A DNA stretch of 64,000 nt from Tridacna crocea. Its lineage: Eukaryota; Mollusca; Bivalvia; Cardiida; Cardiidae. The notes under the pieces are model-generated. The model was not told the DNA's origin. It ran no database searches and saw only the letters and a list, made by a program, of their open reading frames with translations. The stretch lies in the NCBI GenBank assembly GCA_943736015.1, contig OX031070.1:25379673-25443672 (forward strand), written 5' to 3'. Each line of letters begins with the position of its first letter. The first letter of the stretch is position 1. Shown in pieces: positions 3,671 through 53,596 of this stretch. The position numbers and the translations under genes are program-made.

Positions 3671-4020
3671 TAAAAAAAAATACATTAAACAGGGTTCCCA
3701 CGCAGTCGGGAAAACGGGAAAAAGTCGGGAATTTCGAAATACCCGTTCCCGGTCTTGAAAAAGTTTTGATTTTTGTTATACCTCTGAAAAACCGGGAAAA
3801 AACCGGGAAAAGTACGAAACGTTTTGGGTGTGAAACAAGAAATTTAGGACGATAAAAATCTCCGGTCTGCGTCCTCCATTTTTCGGATAAAGATCCAATA
3901 TTTTGTATAATATATAGACCGTCATTGGTCGAAGTAGGTGAATTTCCCAAATACATGACGGTCTTTTTTTAGGTTCACTGGTCCCGGAATTATTCTAATA
4001 TTTAAATAAACCGGGATGTA

Positions 4021-4143
4021 AACTGGCCACCGTTGTATACCGTGTATTACAACAGGCACAAGCTAATCGTACCGTGCCCTGTGATTGGATAATTGATACG
4101 GCCAATGAAACGGCTCGAAACATATATCGAGTAACCTGACAAT
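4021..4143. repeat. 125-bp motif, copy 1
   Basis: It starts AACTGGCCACCGTTG and ends near the sequence ATATCGAGTAACCTGACAATG. It recurs as a tandem pair at 5225-5474. Confidence 0.85.
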
Positions 4144-5224
4144 GTGCTCAGTTGACTTTATTTCATTCTTATTTTGATTATTATGTTATTAATAAATAAT
4201 AGAATACAGGTATTCATAGAGCATAATTTATAACTTTCAGATAAAAGGACCTTTTCCATCTAGAATGATAATTTATTTTTAGATAAAAAGGAGAGGGAAA
4301 TCTGAACATTCCATTGTGAGAAAAGGAGAAACTACTTGTAACAAGCAATTTCTCCTTTTCTCACAAATTTTTCTACCCTATATAGTACTTATTTTCAATT
4401 TAAATGCTCTTTAAAATGTCGTCTGCAATTTGTTTCAATTTGGACTAGTCTAAAATTTGGTCGTCTGGTAATGGGTTAATTAGATACTTTTATTTCAAAT
4501 CCTCTCTAAATTCTTTATTCATTTAATTTTTTGACTATTAGACATCTGAACAACTGAGTAATACATAATTTTTTTCCCCCAAACACTTGTTAGTAAATGT
4601 TGAAACATGCTTCTTTATTCCTTACAAAACAAAGAAATTAAATGTTAAGGGAGAATTAAATGATGATTAGACACCACATGTGTTTTGTTGCCCCTAGGCT
4701 TATCTCTGCAGGCTTCTTCAAAGGGACAACAGACTTTAATCTTTGAGAATTGTAACCTACAATTCAATTTATAAGATAATTGATTATCTTATTACCCTTT
4801 CTGCTTTATCAAGTACAATCTTGTGCATTATATTTGTTATTTTGATGTTAATTTTTTTAGTAAAAGTTCAACGTCAGCACTTGAAAATTTTTCATGTATT
4901 CATTAATTTAGCTTTTATTATAAACATAATAATCAAATAATACTCTTATAATCATTAACATTTTTTTTTCTATCAAATTTTAGACATTCACCTATCGTTT
5001 GTTGAAATGATACCATGCATAAGTAATTATGTTATGATCACAAAAAAATCACTTTAAAAGACAGTAATATCGAAAATTATTTTCATAGCTATTGCTTTTT
5101 ACACCCACCAAAAACATACACACAAAAATCAAGAGACGCTACTCCAAGTTACTACTTGCACAGTTACCTCGCATAATACGGGCAGAATTCGCCCCGTTTC
5201 GATTTAGCCTGTACCGGTCCCTAT
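4136..5224. repeat. Tandem unit A (~1.09 kb), lacking the internal MITE
   Basis: Collinear with units B and C from CTGACAATGTGCTCAGTTG onward, but without the 222-bp TTAA-type MITE: ATAA at 4776-4779 is a single copy. It also lacks about 30 bp present in B and C near 5897-5925. A diverged MITE relative (right boundary TTAA 4476-4479) is shared by all three units. Confidence 0.85.
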
Positions 5225-5474
5225 GAACTGGCCACCGTTGTATACCGTGTATTACAACAGGCACAAGCTAATCGTACCGTGCCCTGTGATTGGATAATTG
5301 ATACGGCCAATGAAACGGCTCGAAACATATATCGAGTAATCTGACAATTGAACTGGCCACCGTTGTATACCGTGTATTACAACAGGCACAAGCTAATCGT
5401 ACCGTGCCCTGTGATTGGATAATTGATACGGCCAATGAAACGGCTCGAAACATATATCGAGTAACCTGACAATG
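5225..5474. repeat. 125-bp motif, tandem pair
   Basis: Two nearly identical copies (from 5225 and 5350) of the motif at 4021-4143. They sit at the junction between units A and B. Confidence 0.85.
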
Positions 5475-6841
5475 TGCTCAGTTGACTTTATTTCATTCTT
5501 ATTTTGATTATTATGTTATTAATAAATAATAGAATACAGGTATTCATAGAGCATAATTTATAACTTTCAGATAAAAGGACCTTTTCCATCTAGAATGATC
5601 TTTTTTTTTTAGATAAAAAGGAGAGGGAAATCTGAACATTCCATTGTGAGAAAAGGAGAAACTACTTGTAACAAGCAATTTCTCCTTTTCTCACAAATTT
5701 TTCTACCCTATGTAGTACTTATTTTCAATTTAAATGCTCTTTAAAATGTCGTCTGCAGTTTGTTTCAATTTGGACTAGTCTAAAATTTGGTCGTCTGGTA
5801 ATGGGTTAATTAGATACTTTTATTTCAAATCCTCTCTAAATTCTTTTTTCATTTAATTTTTTGACTATTAGACATCTGAACAACTGAGTAATACATAAAT
5901 ACTCGGCAAGCAATTTTCCCCCCTTGTAATTTTTTCCCCCCAAACACTTGTTAATAAATGTTGAAACATGCTTCTTTATTCCTTACAAAACAAAGAAATT
6001 AAATGTTAAGGGAGAATTAAATGATGATTAGACACCACATGTGTTTTATTGCCCCTAGGCTTATCTCTGCGGGCTTCTTCAAAGGGACAACAGACTTTAA
6101 TCTTTGAGAATTGCAACCTACAATTCAATTTATAAGATAACCCATTACCACTCAATCCCTACTTTTGACGCCCCTGAGAAAGAAGCCTTTTGAAAACACT
6201 GTGGGAAAAGGAGAAAATGCTGGTAACCAGCATTTTCTCCTTTTCCCACAGTGTTTTCTACCCTTCCCAGACCATATTTCTATTTTTCAGTCACCTTTAT
6301 TTTGTCGTCTGCATATTTTTTTCAATTTGGACCAGTCCAAAATTTTCTCGTGTGGTAATGAGATAATTGATTATCTTATTACCCTTTCTGCTTTATGAAG
6401 TACAAACTTGTGCATTATATTTATTTTGATGTTCATTTTTTCAGTAAAAGTTCAACGTCAGCACTTGAAAAATTTTCATGTATTCATTAATTTAGCTTTT
6501 ATTATAAACATAATAATCAAATAATACTCTTATAATCATTAACATTTTTTTTTCTATCAAATTTTAGACATTCACCTATCGTTTGTTGAAATGATACCAT
6601 GCATAAGTAATTATATTATGATCACAAAACAATCACTTTAAAAGACAGTAATATCGAAAATTATTTTCATAGCTATTGCTTTTTACACCCTCCAAAAATA
6701 TACACACAAAAATCAAGAGACGCTACTCTAAGTTACTATTTGCACAGTTACCTCGCATAATACGGGCAGAATTCGCCCCGTTTCGATTAGCCTGTACCTG
6801 TCCCTATACACGTAGTGTATCAGGGGAGGTAACCAGTCTAT
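5466..6841. repeat. Tandem unit B (1.38 kb)
   Basis: Starts CTGACAATGTGC; the next unit starts 1376 bp later. Nearly identical to unit C. It includes a diverged MITE relative (right TTAA 5806-5809) and an intact-looking MITE at 6141-6362. Confidence 0.9.
6141..6362 (+). mobile_element. TTAA palindromic MITE in unit B, flanked by ATAA
   Basis: 222 bp from CCCATTACCACTC to GTGTGGTAATGAG, with the palindrome at its core. ATAA flanks both ends (6137-6140 and 6363-6366), while the same site in unit A is a single ATAA. This fixes the element ends and a 4-bp duplication. Confidence 0.9.
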
Positions 6842-8220
6842 CTGACAATGTGCTCAGTTGACTTTATTTCATTCTTATTTTGATTATTATGTTATTAATA
6901 AATAATAGAATACAGGTATACATAGAGCATAATTTATAACTTTCAGATAAAAGGACCTTTTCCATCTAGAATGATCATTTTTTTTTTTTTAGATAAAAAG
7001 GAGAGGGAAATCTGAACATTCCATTGTGAGAAAAGGAGAAACTACTTGTAACAAGCAATTTCTCCTTTTCTCACAAATTTTTCTACCCTATATAGTACTT
7101 ATTTTCAATTTAAATGCTCTTTAAAATGTCGTCTGCAGTTTGTTTCAATTTGGACTAATCTAAAATTTGGTCGTCTGGTAATGGGTTAATTAGATACTTT
7201 TATTTCAAATCCTCTCTAAATTCTTTATTCATTTAATTTTTTGACTATTAGACATCTGAACAACTGAGTAATACATAAATACTCGGCAAGCAATTTTCCC
7301 CCCTTGTAATTTTTTTCCCCCCAAACACTTGTTAATAAATGTTGAAACATGCTTCTTTATTCCTTACAAAACAAAGAAATTAAATGTTAAGGGAGAATTA
7401 AATGATGATTAGACACCACATGTGTTTTATTGCCCCTAGGCTTATCTCTGCGGGCTTCTTCAAAGGGACAACAGACTTTAATCTTTGAGAATTGCAACCT
7501 ACAATTCAATTTATAAGATAACCCATTACCACTCAATCCCTACTTTTGACGCCCCTGAGAAAGAAGCATTTTGAAAACACTGTGGGAAAAGGAGAAAATG
7601 CTGGTAACCAGCATTTTCTCCTTTTCCCACAGTGTTTTCTACCCTTCCCAGACCATATTTCTATTTTTCAGTCACCTTTATTTTGTCGTCTGCATATTTT
7701 TTTCAATTTGGACCAGTCCAAAATTTTCTCGTGTGGTTATGAGATAATTGATTATCTTATTACCCTTTCTGCTTTATCAAGTACAAACTTGTGCATTATA
7801 TTTATTTTGATGTTCATTTTTTCAGTAAAAGTTCAACGTCAGCACTTGAAAATTTTTCATGTATCCATTAATTTAGCTTTTATTATAAACATAATAATCA
7901 AATAATACTCTTATAATCATTAACTTTTTTTTTTCTATCAAATTTTAGACATTCACCTATCGTTTGTTGAAATGATACCATGCATAAGTAATTATATTAT
8001 GATCACAAAACAATCACTTTAAAAGACAGTAATATCGAAAATTATTTTCATAGCTATTGCTTTTTACACCCTCCAAAAATATACACACAAAAATCAAGAG
8101 ACGCTACTCTAAGTTACTATTTGCACAGTTACCTCGCATAATACGGGCAGAATTCGCCCCGTTTCGATTAGCCTGTACCTGTCCCTATACACGTAGTGTA
8201 TCAGGGGAGGTAACCAGTCT
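6842..8220. repeat. Tandem unit C (1.38 kb)
   Basis: Differs from B by scattered substitutions and small indels, which points to a recent duplication or conversion. It carries the second filled MITE site (7522-7743) and a diverged relative (right TTAA 7186-7189). Confidence 0.9.
7522..7743 (+). mobile_element. TTAA palindromic MITE in unit C, flanked by ATAA
   Basis: Same insertion as the one in unit B, copied with the unit: identical boundaries (ATAA at 7518-7521 and 7744-7747) and the same 222-bp length. Confidence 0.9.
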
Positions 8221-8290
8221 ACGGTCCCTATACACGTATAGATTGGTTACCGCCCTGATACACTACGTGTATAGGGACCGGTACAGGCTA
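8178..8290. repeat. ~50-bp inverted repeat closing the tandem array
   Basis: GATTAGCCTGTACCTGTCCC...GGTAACCAGTCTA faces its near reverse complement ending GGGACCGGTACAGGC. The same sequence marks the end of units A (cut at 5224) and B, so it is probably a terminus of the repeating element. Confidence 0.75.
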
Positions 8291-8760
8291 AATCAAAAAA
8301 TAATAATCAATAATGTAGACCTTTACTGCTTTGTACTCAGGTTAGTGATATAGGACCATCATGGTCCTATTGTTCCCAATTTGCCTGGTTACTGGTATGT
8401 AGTCTAATAAGGATCTATACTATTTGCCTTCAAATACTTCATTACTTGTAGGAACTGTAAGTGAACAGCATGGATCCTTATTAAACTGCCTGTATGGATA
8501 TGCTAATTTGAATCTATATTCGGTCATTTGTAGTTTTTTTAACTGGCCAAGTAAAGAAATGAAATAACTATGATGCAGTTAGAATGTTCTTTAGATCTTA
8601 ATTTTTCATTAAAACAAGGAATGTATGTAAGAAAGTAGCTTTCAAAAGGTTTTGCATAAATTTCCAGTTTTTCTATTGGAAAAAACCTTGAATTTTGAAA
8701 AAAAATCCTGGAAAAAGTCTGGAATTTTGCAAGCAGAAAGTTGTGGGAACCCTGATTAAA

Positions 8761-28974: not shown

Positions 28975-29720
28975 AGGATGAAATTTCATATTGACAACAC
29001 CTATACTCTTGGAGATACAGTGTTGTCAAAATTCATGTGTAGAAATAACTAAAGATATCATGTCATGAAATTTCATAGCCATAGCTAGCATAGCATTTGA
29101 GAATCCTCCAAACAAAATTGAAGTCTCAAAAACAATACAGGGGAAAAACACGAAAGTTTGGGAAGCAGGAACAATTCCTTACAGTTCTATTTCATAAGAT
29201 GTACTCTCCCACAATAACTCAAAAATTAAGCAAGCAAGAGTTGGAATTTATAAGCACTGCACTCCCCCTTGATGGAATGTATCCATGCATGAAATTTCAT
29301 AACCCTAGCTAGTATAGTTTTTAAGATATGCGCCAGACAAAATTCAAGTATTAAAAACAACAAAGGGCAATAATTCAAATATTAAGCGAGCAAGAGTTAT
29401 GATTCCTGTGCACTGCACTCCCCCTTGATGAGATCTATCCACCCATGAAATTTCATAACCCTAGCTAGTAATATAGTTTTGGAGATATGCTGCGGACAAA
29501 ATTCAAGTATGAAAAACGACAAAGGGCAATAACTCAAAATTTAAGCAAGCAAAAGTTATGATTCCTGTGCACTGCACTCCCCCTTGATGAGATCCATCCA
29601 CCCATGAAATTTCATAACCCTAGCTAGTATAGTTTTGGAGATATGCTCTGGACAAGGAACTAGACGCCGCCCGCCCACCACGGGTGATCCCATAATACGT
29701 CACGTCTTCGACAGGCCTAT
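28975..29720. repeat. ~158-bp tandem repeat block (AAAGGGCAATAA type)
   Basis: At least three units carry CCCTTGATGAGATCTATCCA, CATGAAATTTCATAACC and ACAAAGGGCAATAA. The block ends with ATAATACGTCACGTCTTCG, a diverged form of the end seen at 37985-38006. Confidence 0.8.
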
Positions 29721-34500: not shown

Positions 34501-37500
34501 ATGTGAAAAAGACTCTGGCTAAAAAATCTACTTATTTCATGTAGCAGTCATTCCAACCTATCAATGACACTTTCTTAATCTAAGATTTTAACTACAATGA
34601 GGAGCTACAAATTAATTTGCTTTGACACATGGACTGAACTGAAAATTATCGCTCTGGTTTTATCCAAGTAATAACTTGGAAAAATTAATTTATCATCAAT
34701 TCTGTCACAATTATAAAATTCTTTCAACAACAAGAACCCTGTAACATAGTTTACACTCTTACTTTTTAACAAACCTGAAGAAAGTAAATTGTCTACAAAC
34801 ATTTTCAATTTGCAAGTGTACAAAAATTTGTGGTGTGATAAAGAATTCAATGATCCAGTCAAACAATGTCTAAATACAGCTCCCTTACCTGGTACAGAAC
34901 ATTTTCTCGTCGAAGAAAGATAATCGTGCCTTTGCTTGTGAAGTATTCTGGCTTATCTTGACCAATATTTTCATTCTTGATTTCACCAAATGTCTTCCAG
35001 TTTGTTGCAGAACCTAGGATCATAAATCATAGATGAGCCATGCATCTGCCACAGATAATAACCCATATAAGCCAGGACAGTCTGCACAGGTCAAAACCTT
35101 TTGCATTTGGTCAATTTTCTGCATGTCAAAGGGCCATTGTCTATCAGGATTCAGTTTCTTGTTTGACGCTTGATCCATAATTATGTGATATCTTGCCTGA
35201 TAAAATGGATCACAGAGATGCATTAACCCTTTACCCCATAAGGCATGTCTATGGTATCTTTAACTGACCTTAAATAACAACGAAGATGAAGCAGTTTCAT
35301 ATGTGTATATGTCACCTTTTGATAGCATAGGAAACATTGTGGCAAAATGTGAAATTGCTCGTGACGAACAATTTCACTTTTTGCCACAATGTTTTCCAAA
35401 GGCTCCTACAAGCAATGCATAGAAATGAGTATCTATTGAGTTAAGGGTTACACCCCCTTTTGCCAGAGCAATTTACAGAGTAAGTGGTGTATACAATGTG
35501 CTACATACAATGGTTTGTGTACCAGGAAGTCCATGTAATTCTTAATAGGCCAAAAAAGTTCTGGAAATGTCTATTAAAAGCACCAGCAGACAACAAACGA
35601 GCTCAAATAATGGAATACTGGATAATCTCAACAGATCTAGTAAGTAACAAAAATTTCTTAAATCATCCCTTTGTTTTACAGACCTGAATGTGGAAAGCTC
35701 TTCAGCGGATTATTCAAATATACCTCCCTCTAAGGTCAGTAACAAAATATGGAAACAAAGATAACAAAACACCTGTGTGCTATTTATCAGCTTTTTCTTT
35801 CAAACTTCATGCCGACACATGTTATTACCTTAATTCTTTACTAAACAACAAAACTGAGAGCATTTTGTGGACAAAAGTGACTGAAAAAAAATTGGTATTT
35901 GTTTGGGGAAGGGTAGATAAGGTGGGAAAAGAAGACACTGCTTGTCACCAACATTTTCTTCCTTTCCCACCATGTTTTTAAAAGACATCTTTCTCAAGGT
36001 TGTTAAAAGTCAATATTGTGCGTGGTAACAGAGTTGATTAATTTGGAACAAGTCTGCCACAAATTACATAAAGCTGTTATCATAAAACAGCTTATCAACA
36101 TTAAAACATTGTTTATCAACACAAATAAAACAAGAACATACATGTACATGATGTCAAGACATGAAATGTCTTTTTTTGCAACCATGATTTTCTAAAGAAA
36201 TATCTACAAGATAACAGCAGGTCTGTTGACATAATATTTGACAAAATTTTGACCATGAAACCTTGGTTTGGCTCTACCTATCATTGCAGACATATCAAAC
36301 ATTGCTGAAATCATCGAATGAAATGAAAACTACAAGCATTTTACCTGCAGAGCCTTGATTCTCTGATCTGTAGCCTTGGAAGTCTGAATTCTGCCCATCC
36401 TTTTCCCACCAGCCCTTCAGTACATGGGCTTCCCTAATATCTGGGTTCAGAATCATTTGGCTGCTAGATAACAATGACAGTGATCTGCCACCCCAATCGG
36501 AAAGCCGACATCCTTTACATGCAATGACAGGGTTACCGTCTGATTTGAAAGATTCTGCCTGCAAATAATTAATGTATAACTCAAAGTACCAACGGTAATA
36601 AGAGCATTCAAAAATAGAAAAGTGAATAAAAATCTGAAGCCTCATAATTATATTCAGCTAAGCCTGACATCTCAATTGGTATCAAATTGAAATCCTGGGG
36701 TCTCATTGACCCTTTCTCACCGTATTCAGATTGGTAACAAAAGCTTCGCAAAGCGGCGCATATACGCCCGAAGGGGCTTGTCAGTGAAATGAGTTGAAGT
36801 GACGGAAGGGCCATGAATGAAGAGTAGTTAATCTCCACGATATGTGAAAAATATTAAAGAGCAATAACTAAACAAAGAAAGGGTGGCACAGTTACAAATT
36901 TTGTAAATTTCTGTTCTCCACAAGGTGTTCTATCAGTTTTGAAAGGTTCAAGATCATAGCTTTTATATTTTAGAAATTATGGCCCAGACGAAAATTCAAA
37001 GAGAAAACTAACAAAGGGCAATAAGTAAAAAAAGAAGGATGGCAGAGTTATGGTTCTTGTGCAGTGCACTTCTTTATAATGTGTTCTATAAGTCTTTGAA
37101 GTTTCAAGATAATAGGTTTTAAAGTTTGGGAGTTATTGCCTGGGCAAAAATTCAAACTAAAAAATTAACAAAGGGCAATAACTAAAAAAATAAAAGTCAC
37201 AGACTTATGTTTCATGTGCACTGCACTTCTCCATAATGTGTTCTATCGTTGTATGAAGTTGCAAGTTATTAGGTTTTATAGTTTGGAAATTATGGCCTGG
37301 ACAAAAATTCAAACTGAAAATTAACAAAGGGCAATAAGTAAAAAAATAAAGGTCGCAGAGTTATTGTTCATGAGCAATGCACTTCTCCATAAAGTGTTCT
37401 ATCACTATATGAGGTTGCAAGTTATTAGCTTTTATAGTTTGGATTTATGGCCTGGACAAAAATTCAAACTGAAAATTAACAAAGGGCAATAACTCAAAAA

Positions 37501-40500
37501 ATAAAAGTGGCAGAGTTATGGTTCATGTGTGATGCACTTCTCCACAATGTTATCTATCAGTGTATGAAGTTTCAAAGTTAATAGCTTTTATAGTTTAGAA
37601 GTTATGGCCTGGACAAAAATTCAAACTGAAAATTAACAAAGGGCTGTTACTCAAAAAATAAAAGTGCCTTGGCAGAGTTATGGTTCTTGTGCACTGCACT
37701 TCTCCATAATGTGTTCTATCAGTGTATGTAGTTTCAATTTAATACCTTTTATGGAATGGAAGTTATGGCCTGAACAAAAATTCAAAGTGAGAAGTTGGTT
37801 ATTTAAGAAATCAAGGGCAGATAATTTTGGAACGAAAACAGCGATCAAAATTCTAAGACCCAGGTGCACAACTAGACATCATGGAGATTCATTGTGGCAA
37901 GTTTCAAATAATTCCGATGAAAACTGTAGGAGGAGTTGCGCACACAAGAAATTGCTAACGGACGGACGACCGGGGGTATAACATAATACGACCCTTCGGG
38001 CGTATAACAACCCTTAGGAAGTAAGGCTTTGAAAACTTTGTGGGAAAAGGAGGAAACGCTGATGATCAGCATTCCCCCCACTTTCTATCCTTATATGGAG
38101 AATCCCATCATCTGCACCATATTTTATTTGTCATCTGAACATGATTTGAACATGAGAGTCTCTTATTTTCTGACTTGCAGCAAAGTGTTTTTGACATTTT
38201 GTAAGATAAAATGCACCACTTACATCACTTCCCCACAAAGTTAGATTCACCACCATTCCGGATTGGTCTACCAGCTGCACATCTCTCTTTGAAATCTCCT
38301 TCTGACTCTGTCGACCCGTCACTGTACTGACATCTGCTGCACTTTTCACTACTCCTACAACATCTGTTAGATGACAAGACAATTTATTTGCATGTTTTTT
38401 TCAGAGCACCTTTCAAAACGACAGAATACTTCACGGCATCCTCACGTGTCAATGGTGCAACCTTCACAAGATTCATATGCAAATAAACAGCACATACTGA
38501 AGTCCAAAATTTGCCATAACCTCTTATTTTGTAAACAGGGCTTGGGGGGGGAAAATGAGATTAATTCTTTGCCAAACAACAAAAGCTTGGACTTATCCAA
38601 ATTGAAAGTATTTGCAGACAAAAAATAAATGCCTCAATATTGAAACTTGACTTTAGAAGAGTAGAAAACATTGTAGGAAAAGGAGAAAATGGTGGTTACC
38701 AGCATTTTCTCCTTTTCCCACAATGTTTTCAGAAGGCTTCTTTCTCTATGTCGTAGACACCAGGGATTGTTTAGTAAAGAGTTTAAGGATTACTGTTATC
38801 TAAAATATACTCAAGACCTGAAGGTAAGAAAATCCTGGCTTGGGTAATAACAACCCCTAATAGGTCCAGCAGCAATGCCTCCCTGTGAGAAACCATGATA
38901 GGCTTCATGTACAAAAACTGGCTTTCTGGAAGGGATGGCCTGAAATATTTGCCATCTTTCGGTAAAACGTCAGTCAAATCTTAAACCAGATTTTGGTAGG
39001 GTTTATATCTTTACCAAACAATCCCAACTTAGAAGAAAAGCTTTTGAGAATATTGTTTGAACGGGAGAAAATACGGGTAACCACCATTTTCTCCTTTTCA
39101 TACAATAATTTCTACCAGTCCAAAAACAATTTTCAGCTTTTGAAAAAGATCAAAAGTGTCTCCTGCAAACAGTTTGCAGTTTGAAAATGTCAGACATTTT
39201 CTTGTTTGGCAATGATTTTAGAGGTAATGGATTTAAAATGATGTATAAGTTTGTTTTGATTCATACAAGAACTTACCAACCATACTGTTGGGCTGTTTGG
39301 CTTCAAGCTGATCTATCTTAACAAAATCAAAGCTCATGGAAGGAAGATCTGTATTATCATCACAGGGTTCAATGATTGTATCGTTATTGAAGGTCATCTC
39401 ATAGTCATTATTCACTGAAGAGTACTGTTTATTTGCCGTTTTCAAAGTAGCTTTAGATAAATAGTACACCTGAAACAAACATCAAATGTTGATGCAAAAG
39501 CTTGGCTGCTGTTGCTTGCAGAAATATACATGGTACCGTTTGTTTGATTCCAAACAGTAGTGTAATTTACGTTGAAAAGAGGGCATGACAGTATCACAAA
39601 TATTTTAAAGGTTATCTTAAAGGTGTGAATCCCCCTTCTGATATCCAACAGCTGGAGTTTTAATACCTTCAGTTATGACAAAGATATCAGAAAATGTCAA
39701 TGTTTTGAACAATGACACAGGCAACAAGGTATTCAAAATAATTCAACATTCTCCTGTAAAAATCTGATGAGAAAAAAAAGGGCAAGTTCTTGAAAACACA
39801 AATGTAAAAAGAAGTTAGACAATAATCAAAACCATTGATGTTTGAGTATTATCCTAAAAGTCAGGAAATTCAATTAACATTCCAGCAAAAGAAAAACACT
39901 TACTCAAACTATGCCACTATGCTCGATCCACTATTGACTTGCATGCCTAAACTTACCTTATTAACTTCAAGCATTTCATAGTATTTGTCAACAACGTCTG
40001 TAAAACCTGTTGCTCTTATTTCCCCGCTTTCGTCCAGCAAGTTCACGCTGAACAAACGACCTTCACCTCTAGAATTACTCCACGATCGTATGTTAGATTT
40101 CTGTGTCACTCTTGCTCGAATTCTCCATCTTGAAAGATAATTTTCACAACTTAATATCCAACCTTCATAACTACAGCTAAGTTGTGTCTACCTGATGAAT
40201 TTTCAATGTTTTTGTTGGAATGCATTCATTCACTTAATTTCAAGACTAACAGAAAGTTTTGATATTTGAATACCTTGCATAACTTTGATGGGTGCAAAAC
40301 CAAGGTCAGAATGTTATCTCTATGCAAGGGATTCTTAACTCTGTACTGCACTACAAAGTTTTGACTAGTCTAAATTGAAAGCATTCGCAGACCAAAATTT
40401 AAAAACAGCTTAACTTAAGGCTTACTTTTATAACAATGGAGAAAACACTGCAGATAAAGGAGAAAATGCAGTTTACCAGCAATTTCCCTTTTACCCAAAA

Positions 40501-53517: not shown

Positions 53518-53596
53518 GCGGCTCGATTGGGATTCGAACCCAGGGCCTCAGAAATACCGTTCCTGCACTCTAACCAACTGAGCTACCGAACCACAT
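53518..53596 (-). repeat. tRNA-like SINE head, facing the previous one
   Basis: On the - strand: GGTAGCTCAGTTGGTTAGAG (box A) and GGGTTCGAATCCC (box B), without a cloverleaf-competent acceptor stem. It converges on the tRNA-Lys-like copy with a 25-bp gap. Confidence 0.72.

What the first reader, a model, noticed from the sequence alone, without database searches (positions are those of the whole stretch)
4776..7747. Empty and filled insertion sites side by side in a tandem array
Units B and C carry a 222-bp MITE bounded by ATAA on both sides. Unit A has the same flanks with a single ATAA (4776-4779) and no element. This proves the element boundaries and the 4-bp duplication, and shows a variant (ATAA) target. 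Either A predates the insertion or the element left A without a footprint, as piggyBac excision does.
Basis: seen in the sequence. Interest (0 to 1): 0.8.

Follow-up and report, generated by a model that had tools for sequence, protein, structure and literature searches.

The report
Transposons nested inside other transposons
Three copies of one mobile DNA element sit one inside another; two brought a smaller passenger element with them and the oldest shows no sign of ever having had it, so the side-by-side filled and empty sites are ordinary transposon history rather than evidence of traceless removal.

Summary
The sequence observation is right: a 222-bp MITE (6141-6362, 7522-7743) is flanked by ATAA in units B and C, and A has a single ATAA (4776-4779). 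The interpretation changes. The units are no tandem array but three copies of a dispersed ~1.26-kb transposon ('carrier', 9-bp target duplications) nested like dolls: B (5349-6840) inside C (5224-5348 + 6850-8221) inside A's tail. Genome-wide, 219 places match the empty junction and 23 the filled one. In a tree of 75 copies the 20 filled fall in one 22-row clade (100/99) with two empties; A is outside, has 0 of 11 scorable clade bases, and A+B+C is rejected (p-AU 0.00013). So the MITE entered one carrier once, elsewhere, and was copied as a passenger; 12 of 15 complete filled carriers have identical 9-bp flanks. A shows no sign of ever holding it. The family's usual target is TTAA (34 of 36 exact duplications); ATAA/TTAT use is published for Pokey. 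The two empties in the filled clade are best read as pre-insertion; excision there is neither shown nor excluded.

The parts
4019..5223 (+). Carrier A, 5' part: the outermost and oldest of the three nested carriers; empty state; lacks a ~31-bp segment that B and C have
   Evidence: 99.25% identical (gaps not counted) to dispersed empty copies such as L013; matches L013 up to its tail once C is taken out
4776..4779 (+). Single ATAA in A: unoccupied target site, the family's commonest state
   Evidence: 219 empty junctions; gap 0
5215..5223 (+). CGGTCCCTA, left copy of the 9-bp duplication made by carrier C in A's tail
5224..5348 (+). Carrier C, first 125 bp (its head), cut off from the rest by carrier B
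   Evidence: C without B is 1497 bp and matches carrier L044 end to end at 99.6%
5340..5348 (+). TCTGACAAT, left copy of the 9-bp duplication made by carrier B in C
5349..6840 (+). Carrier B, complete, 1492 bp, filled
   Evidence: its joined flanks match 200 contiguous bases of a carrier at 97.5%
6137..6140 (+). ATAA, left duplication of the MITE in B
6141..6362 (+). 222-bp MITE in B; identical to a copy with TTAA on both sides elsewhere (L002)
6192..6258 (+). 67-nt internal palindrome of the MITE (33-nt arms, 100% complementary)
6363..6366 (+). ATAA, right duplication of the MITE in B
6841..6849 (+). TCTGACAAT, right copy of B's 9-bp duplication
6850..8221 (+). Carrier C, remainder, filled
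7518..7521 (+). ATAA, left duplication of the MITE in C
7522..7743 (+). 222-bp MITE in C; differs from B's at element positions 47 and 217, each change shared with carriers elsewhere
7744..7747 (+). ATAA, right duplication of the MITE in C
8222..8230 (+). CGGTCCCTA, right copy of C's 9-bp duplication
8231..8298 (.). Rest of A's tail, running into an inverted carrier tail (rearranged 3' end of A)
4312..4479 (+). Older degraded relative of the same MITE in the carrier body; right end GGTAATGGG next to TTAA (also about 5642-5809 in B and 7022-7189 in C)

Best explanation
A 222-bp piggyBac-type MITE inserted once, at a variant ATAA target, into one copy of a dispersed non-autonomous 1.26-kb transposon (9-bp duplications, MULE-like). 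That filled carrier then multiplied by its own transposition, and the MITE travelled as a passenger to 23 places in this assembly. At the window locus an empty carrier (A) came first. A filled carrier (C) then jumped into A's tail, and another filled carrier of a different sublineage (B) jumped into C's head. The filled and empty sites lie side by side because carriers of different lineage were nested here, not because the MITE moved here. Shown: the nesting, the 9-bp and 4-bp duplications, the placement of every filled copy tested in one clade, A's empty-lineage haplotype, and the linkage of the MITE to the carrier haplotype. Inferred: the superfamilies, and the reading of the two empty members of the filled clade as pre-insertion.
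For: Empty junction 219 places, filled junction 23 places. The tree of 75 of 82 extracted copies puts 20 filled plus 2 empties in one clade, 100/99, with A elsewhere; with 22 filled rows the clade stays 100/99, and A+B+C together is rejected, p-AU 0.00013. Of the 22 filled rows, 20 have the clade base at every scorable one of 13 diagnostic positions and 2 (B, L058) miss one; A has 0 of 11. 12 of 15 filled carriers with both ends (B included) have identical 9-bp flanks, differing between loci (45 of 53 over all complete carriers), so whole filled carriers transposed. Nest: identical 9-bp repeats flank B and C; C minus B matches a carrier end to end at 99.6%; B's joined flanks match 200 contiguous carrier bases. 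A right-TIR change at element position 217 is present in 17 of 22 filled copies at different loci, C among them and B not, so the altered MITE spread with the carrier. A copy identical to B's MITE with TTAA on both sides exists elsewhere (L002).
Against: Two empties (L072, L090) lie in the filled clade and the tree does not resolve them. The best trees do not make the filled copies one side of a branch (2 and 3 changes), although filled monophyly is not rejected (p-AU 0.44). L072 shows the filled base at 13 of 13 diagnostic positions and shares one base (+110) with B, and L072+B is not rejected either (p-AU 0.40), so excision there is not excluded. No autonomous partner was identified for either element.
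Confidence: 0.93

Rival explanations
1. A once held the MITE and lost it by precise, piggyBac-like excision that left one ATAA.
For: The junction is seamless, and piggyBac excision is footprint-free (PMC7351741, passages read).
Against: A has 0 of 11 scorable filled-clade bases, lies outside the filled clade, and shares its empty state with 219 junctions genome-wide.
Confidence: 0.01
2. A true tandem array: local duplication of one unit, with the MITE inserted before the B/C duplication and after A split off.
For: Three copies in direct orientation with similar spacing. B+C as sisters is not formally rejected (p-AU 0.098).
Against: B and C are each complete carriers with their own 9-bp duplications of two different target sequences. 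C matches a copy on C3 at 1111 of 1112 bases, against 1098 of 1107 for B. B has the older and C the newer base at carrier positions -359 and +182, and the newer bases are in 16 of 20 and 14 of 18 filled copies with a base there; MITE changes at positions 47 and 217 in C recur at other loci.
Confidence: 0.02
3. The MITE was excised precisely from one or both empty members of the filled clade (L072, C1:58911600; L090, C14:3677398).
For: Both are empty, have filled-type bases on both sides, and fall in the 100/99 clade. L072 has 13 of 13 diagnostic bases and L090 11 of 13.
Against: L090 has the older base at -235 and -65, where every filled copy with a base is derived. Both L072 and L090 have the older base at -359 and +182, and L072 at +437, where most filled copies are derived (+182 borders a T run). 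Gaps aside, the one newer-looking base L072 shares with a filled copy is +110, with B (also in one empty), which conflicts with +437. A base position, before insertion, needs no excision and is not rejected. L072 still cannot be told apart from an early filled lineage such as L008 or L056.
Confidence: 0.12
4. Independent repeated insertion of the MITE into the same ATAA of several carriers.
For: A target inside a short palindrome (TAAGATAA-TTGA-TTATCTTA) could be a hot spot.
Against: All 22 filled rows examined share the clade haplotype, one orientation, one site and near-identical elements.
Confidence: 0.01

Closest known systems
Pokey and mPok (piggyBac superfamily, Daphnia), PMC3849761 (one passage read)
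   Same: TTAA duplications with a minority of ATAA and TTAT (5.09% and 5.93% there; here 1 ATAA event and 1 TTAT among 36 exact duplications)
   Different: A 222-bp MITE with an internal palindrome; no transposase partner identified; rDNA targeting not examined
piggyBac (mechanism paper PMC7351741, passages read)
   Same: TTAA-type 4-bp duplication; seamless excision is possible in principle
   Different: No excision demonstrated here; the ends (CCCATTACCA) were not tied to a piggyBac transposase
Kolobok T2-MITEs of Xenopus (PMC6004289, passages read)
   Same: TTAA targets and MITE amplification
   Different: Kolobok ends are AG / AGGRR in that paper; here they start CCC or CTC
Mutator-like elements (MULEs); nested insertions in them, PMC3903597 (abstract and passages read)
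   Same: 9-bp target duplications (MULE range, partly recalled) and nested insertions
   Different: The carrier has only short imperfect terminal repeats (TGAACTGGCCACC / TAGACTGGTTACC), no MULE transposase was looked for, and it nests into its own kind, whereas that paper says few coding MULEs insert into other elements

Membership tests
piggyBac superfamily (the MITE) | 4-bp TTAA target duplication | tested here: met
   Of 60 distinct near-complete family copies in the DNA held, 34 have exact TTAA on both sides, 1 ATAA (carrier site, counted once), 1 TTAT, 24 no exact duplication. Seven of the loci (L062-L068) were chosen by a pattern close to such flanks.
piggyBac superfamily (the MITE) | Terminal inverted repeats starting CCY (recalled criterion) | tested here: met
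   CCCATTACCAC at the left, CTCATTACCAC (read inwards) at the right
piggyBac superfamily (the MITE) | Ends shared with an element encoding a DDE_Tnp_1_7 transposase | tested here: inconclusive
   118 PF13843 matches in the genome. Six short flanks of 3 of them showed no matching pair of ends: one flank (L095) holds a MITE copy and a TTAACCCTTT, another (L100) a TTAACCCTTT, four nothing of the kind. The other matches were not examined.
piggyBac superfamily (the MITE) | Footprint-free excision | not testable with these tools
   Needs other individuals or an excision assay; two candidate empties are unresolved
Mutator-like elements (the carrier) | Target duplication of about 9 bp (recalled criterion) | tested here: met
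   45 of 53 complete carriers have identical 9-bp flanks
Mutator-like elements (the carrier) | MULE transposase sharing the ends | not tested
   No search was made with a MULE model
Kolobok (the MITE) | Terminal RR (AG/AGG) next to TTAA | tested here: not met
   Ends are CCC or CTC against AG ends in PMC6004289 (passages)

The most novel reading that the evidence does not exclude
L072 (C1:58911600) is a natural seamless excision of the MITE from its non-canonical ATAA site: an empty carrier with all 13 filled-clade bases that split off after the insertion. This would show that variant-target copies remain mobile and revert without a scar.
Probability: 0.12. Interest if true: 0.45.

Novelty: new member of a known kind. 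Interest (0 to 1): 0.3.

Why it matters
It corrects a tempting inference: filled and empty sites next to each other can arise without any local insertion or excision, simply because the host repeats are themselves mobile and nest into each other. The carrier family offers an ordered series (empty, early filled, late filled with a mutated MITE end) for studying passenger spread. The two empties at or near the base of the filled clade make the excision question testable with a few PCRs.

Tried and rejected
Tried: a gapped pattern for leftover bases at the site found nothing. It is too strict to count as proof, because it also misses the two copies with 6 extra bases, whose flanks read TTTTTAAG rather than TTTATAAG. 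Excision from A, local tandem duplication and repeated insertion were rejected for the reasons in the rivals. Linking the MITE to a piggyBac gene in the genome was inconclusive. The placement of L072 and L090 relative to the filled copies could not be resolved. A paper search for one non-autonomous DNA transposon amplified inside another found 0 papers with 4 of 5 terms; that is one narrow search and no evidence of absence. Other paper searches were used as listings, from which four papers were opened for passages. Rows left out: 7 of 82 extracted copies were too short for the first tree; two of them (L005, L041) were put back for the later tree, where L005 had 48% of the columns. Of the 23 filled places, C20 (a 55-kb contig, cut at its end) has no right side and is in neither tree. 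The empty rows were not a random sample: 30 loci were the best matches to A, 20 came from the listing, the rest were chosen by haplotype. The output was cut in the middle; one search repeats the site list whole.

Full report
Observation. Reading the sequence confirms the finding. B and C each hold a 222-bp element (6141-6362 and 7522-7743) between ATAA repeats, and A has one ATAA at 4776-4779 with no extra base (gap 0). The three-unit comparison alone leaves a 2-bp ambiguity, because AGATAA is repeated. A copy identical to B's element on C11 (L002...TTAA-CCCATTACCAC...GTGGTAATGAG-TTAA...) fixes the element at 222 bp with a 4-bp duplication.

What the units are. The window lies in a 1.05-Gb genome (G000, C15). 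The unit is a dispersed repeat: a search with half of it gave 323 first-look candidates, of which 40 were scored, all 98-100% identical over its full length. Aligning copies gives ends TGAACTGGCCACC...GGTAACCAGTCTA, length 1233-1298 bp empty and 1455-1497 bp filled. Of 53 copies with both ends, 45 have identical 9-bp flanks that differ between loci. I call it the carrier.

The array is a nest. B (5349-6840) is a complete filled carrier flanked by TCTGACAAT. C is 5224-5348 plus 6850-8221 and is flanked by CGGTCCCTA. C without B is 1497 bp and matches carrier L044 end to end at 99.6%. A without C matches an empty carrier (L013, 95.9% with gaps) up to its tail, which then runs into an inverted tail. 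B's joined flanks match 200 contiguous carrier bases at 97.5%. So the order at this locus is A, then C into A, then B into C.

Where the MITE came in. Searches with up to 2 mismatches found the filled junction 23 times at ATAA (22 exact, 1 with one mismatch), plus 9 hits where the element end follows TTAA, and the empty junction 219 times. One more filled copy has an internal deletion from the old MITE relic into the new MITE (L089). I extracted 82 carrier copies; 75 were long enough for the first tree (54 empty, 20 filled, 1 with 6 extra bases at the site). The 20 filled rows fall with two empties in a 22-row set supported 100/99, and A is elsewhere. Thirteen substitutions separate the filled clade from the bulk of empties: 20 of 22 filled rows have the clade base at every scorable one, B and L058 miss one each, A has 0 of 11, and the six nearest empties have 5 or 6. 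A+B+C as a clade is rejected (p-AU 0.00013). Twelve of 15 filled carriers with both ends keep identical 9-bp flanks; of the other three, L004 shows a 10-bp repeat and L039 and L061 none. The MITE therefore spread inside the carrier. A change in its right terminal repeat (position 217) is in 17 of 22 filled copies, including C but not B, as expected for a passenger. B keeps the older base also at carrier positions -359 and +182, where 16 of 20 and 14 of 18 filled copies with a base there, C among them, have the newer one. C's closest copy is on C3 (1111 of 1112 bases) and B's on C12 (1097 of 1104), against 1098 of 1107 between B and C. B+C as sisters is not formally rejected (p-AU 0.098).

Excision. 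Nothing supports it for A. Genome-wide, a right-side haplotype search found 26 places: 22 filled, one filled with a deletion (L089) and three empties. One of these, L022, has none of the 13 diagnostic bases, so its match is coincidental. L090 has the older base at two positions fixed in filled copies (-235, -65). L072 and L090 have the older base at -359 and +182, and L072 at +437, where most filled copies have the newer one. Both fit a base position before the insertion. Filled monophyly is not rejected (p-AU 0.44), but neither is L072 with B (p-AU 0.40), so L072 stays open.

Target. Of 60 distinct family copies with near-complete ends in the DNA held, 34 have exact TTAA duplications, one ATAA (the carrier event), one TTAT (L064; the same tetramer on the other strand) and 24 none. 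Seven loci had been picked by a pattern close to such flanks. Published Pokey figures are 5.09% ATAA and 5.93% TTAT (PMC3849761, passage read), so the variant target is known. Ends and target fit piggyBac (recalled criteria) better than Kolobok, whose ends start AG (PMC6004289, passages read). The genome has 118 matches to the piggyBac transposase model, but no autonomous partner was tied to this MITE.

Verdict. This is a nested family of mobile elements with a passenger MITE: a new member of a known kind, useful as a caution and as a tractable series, of modest surprise.

Noticed in passing
window 6192-6258 (and 7573-7639): The MITE's internal 67-nt palindrome is conserved: across 59 family copies (97% identity or less) it differs from B's element at 6% of bases against 18% outside. 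Where both sides of a pair changed, 35 cells are complementary and 4 are not (152 one-sided changes; 4 to 18 two-sided changes of any kind under shifted pairings). This suggests selection on, or conversion of, the hairpin arms (cells count sequences, not events).
   Followed up: partly
window 4019-8298; L012, L014, L015, L016, L018, L038, L039, L061, L070, L072, L084: Carriers cluster: 13 of 53 complete carriers (B included) have other carrier sequence within 100 bp, some inside a carrier end. The sample was not random, but the family seems to target itself.
   Followed up: partly
L047 (C8:4544331) and L072 (C1:58912892): Two carriers have 6 extra bases at the very same site (AAGATA-GATCTA-ATTG), possibly the footprint of another transposon with TA duplications.
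   Followed up: no
L089 (C5:42682200-42683500): A filled carrier with a deletion running from the palindrome of the old MITE relic into the new MITE.
   Followed up: no
L064, 795-1015 on the reverse complement: Another family copy flanked by TTAT on both sides, a second, independent non-TTAA duplication.
   Followed up: partly
window 8231-8298: A's tail breaks into an inverted carrier tail, a fold-back rearrangement.
   Followed up: no
window, 41 places: The window is full of relatives of the MITE: 41 matches to CCCATTACCA with up to one mismatch against 3.8 expected; 32 of 51 TIR-like ends stand next to TTAA.
   Followed up: partly
window 29212-29655 and 36914-37790: Tandem arrays of 159-bp and 156-bp units.
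   Followed up: no
window 53519-53592, minus strand: tRNA family match, 48.8 bits.
   Followed up: no
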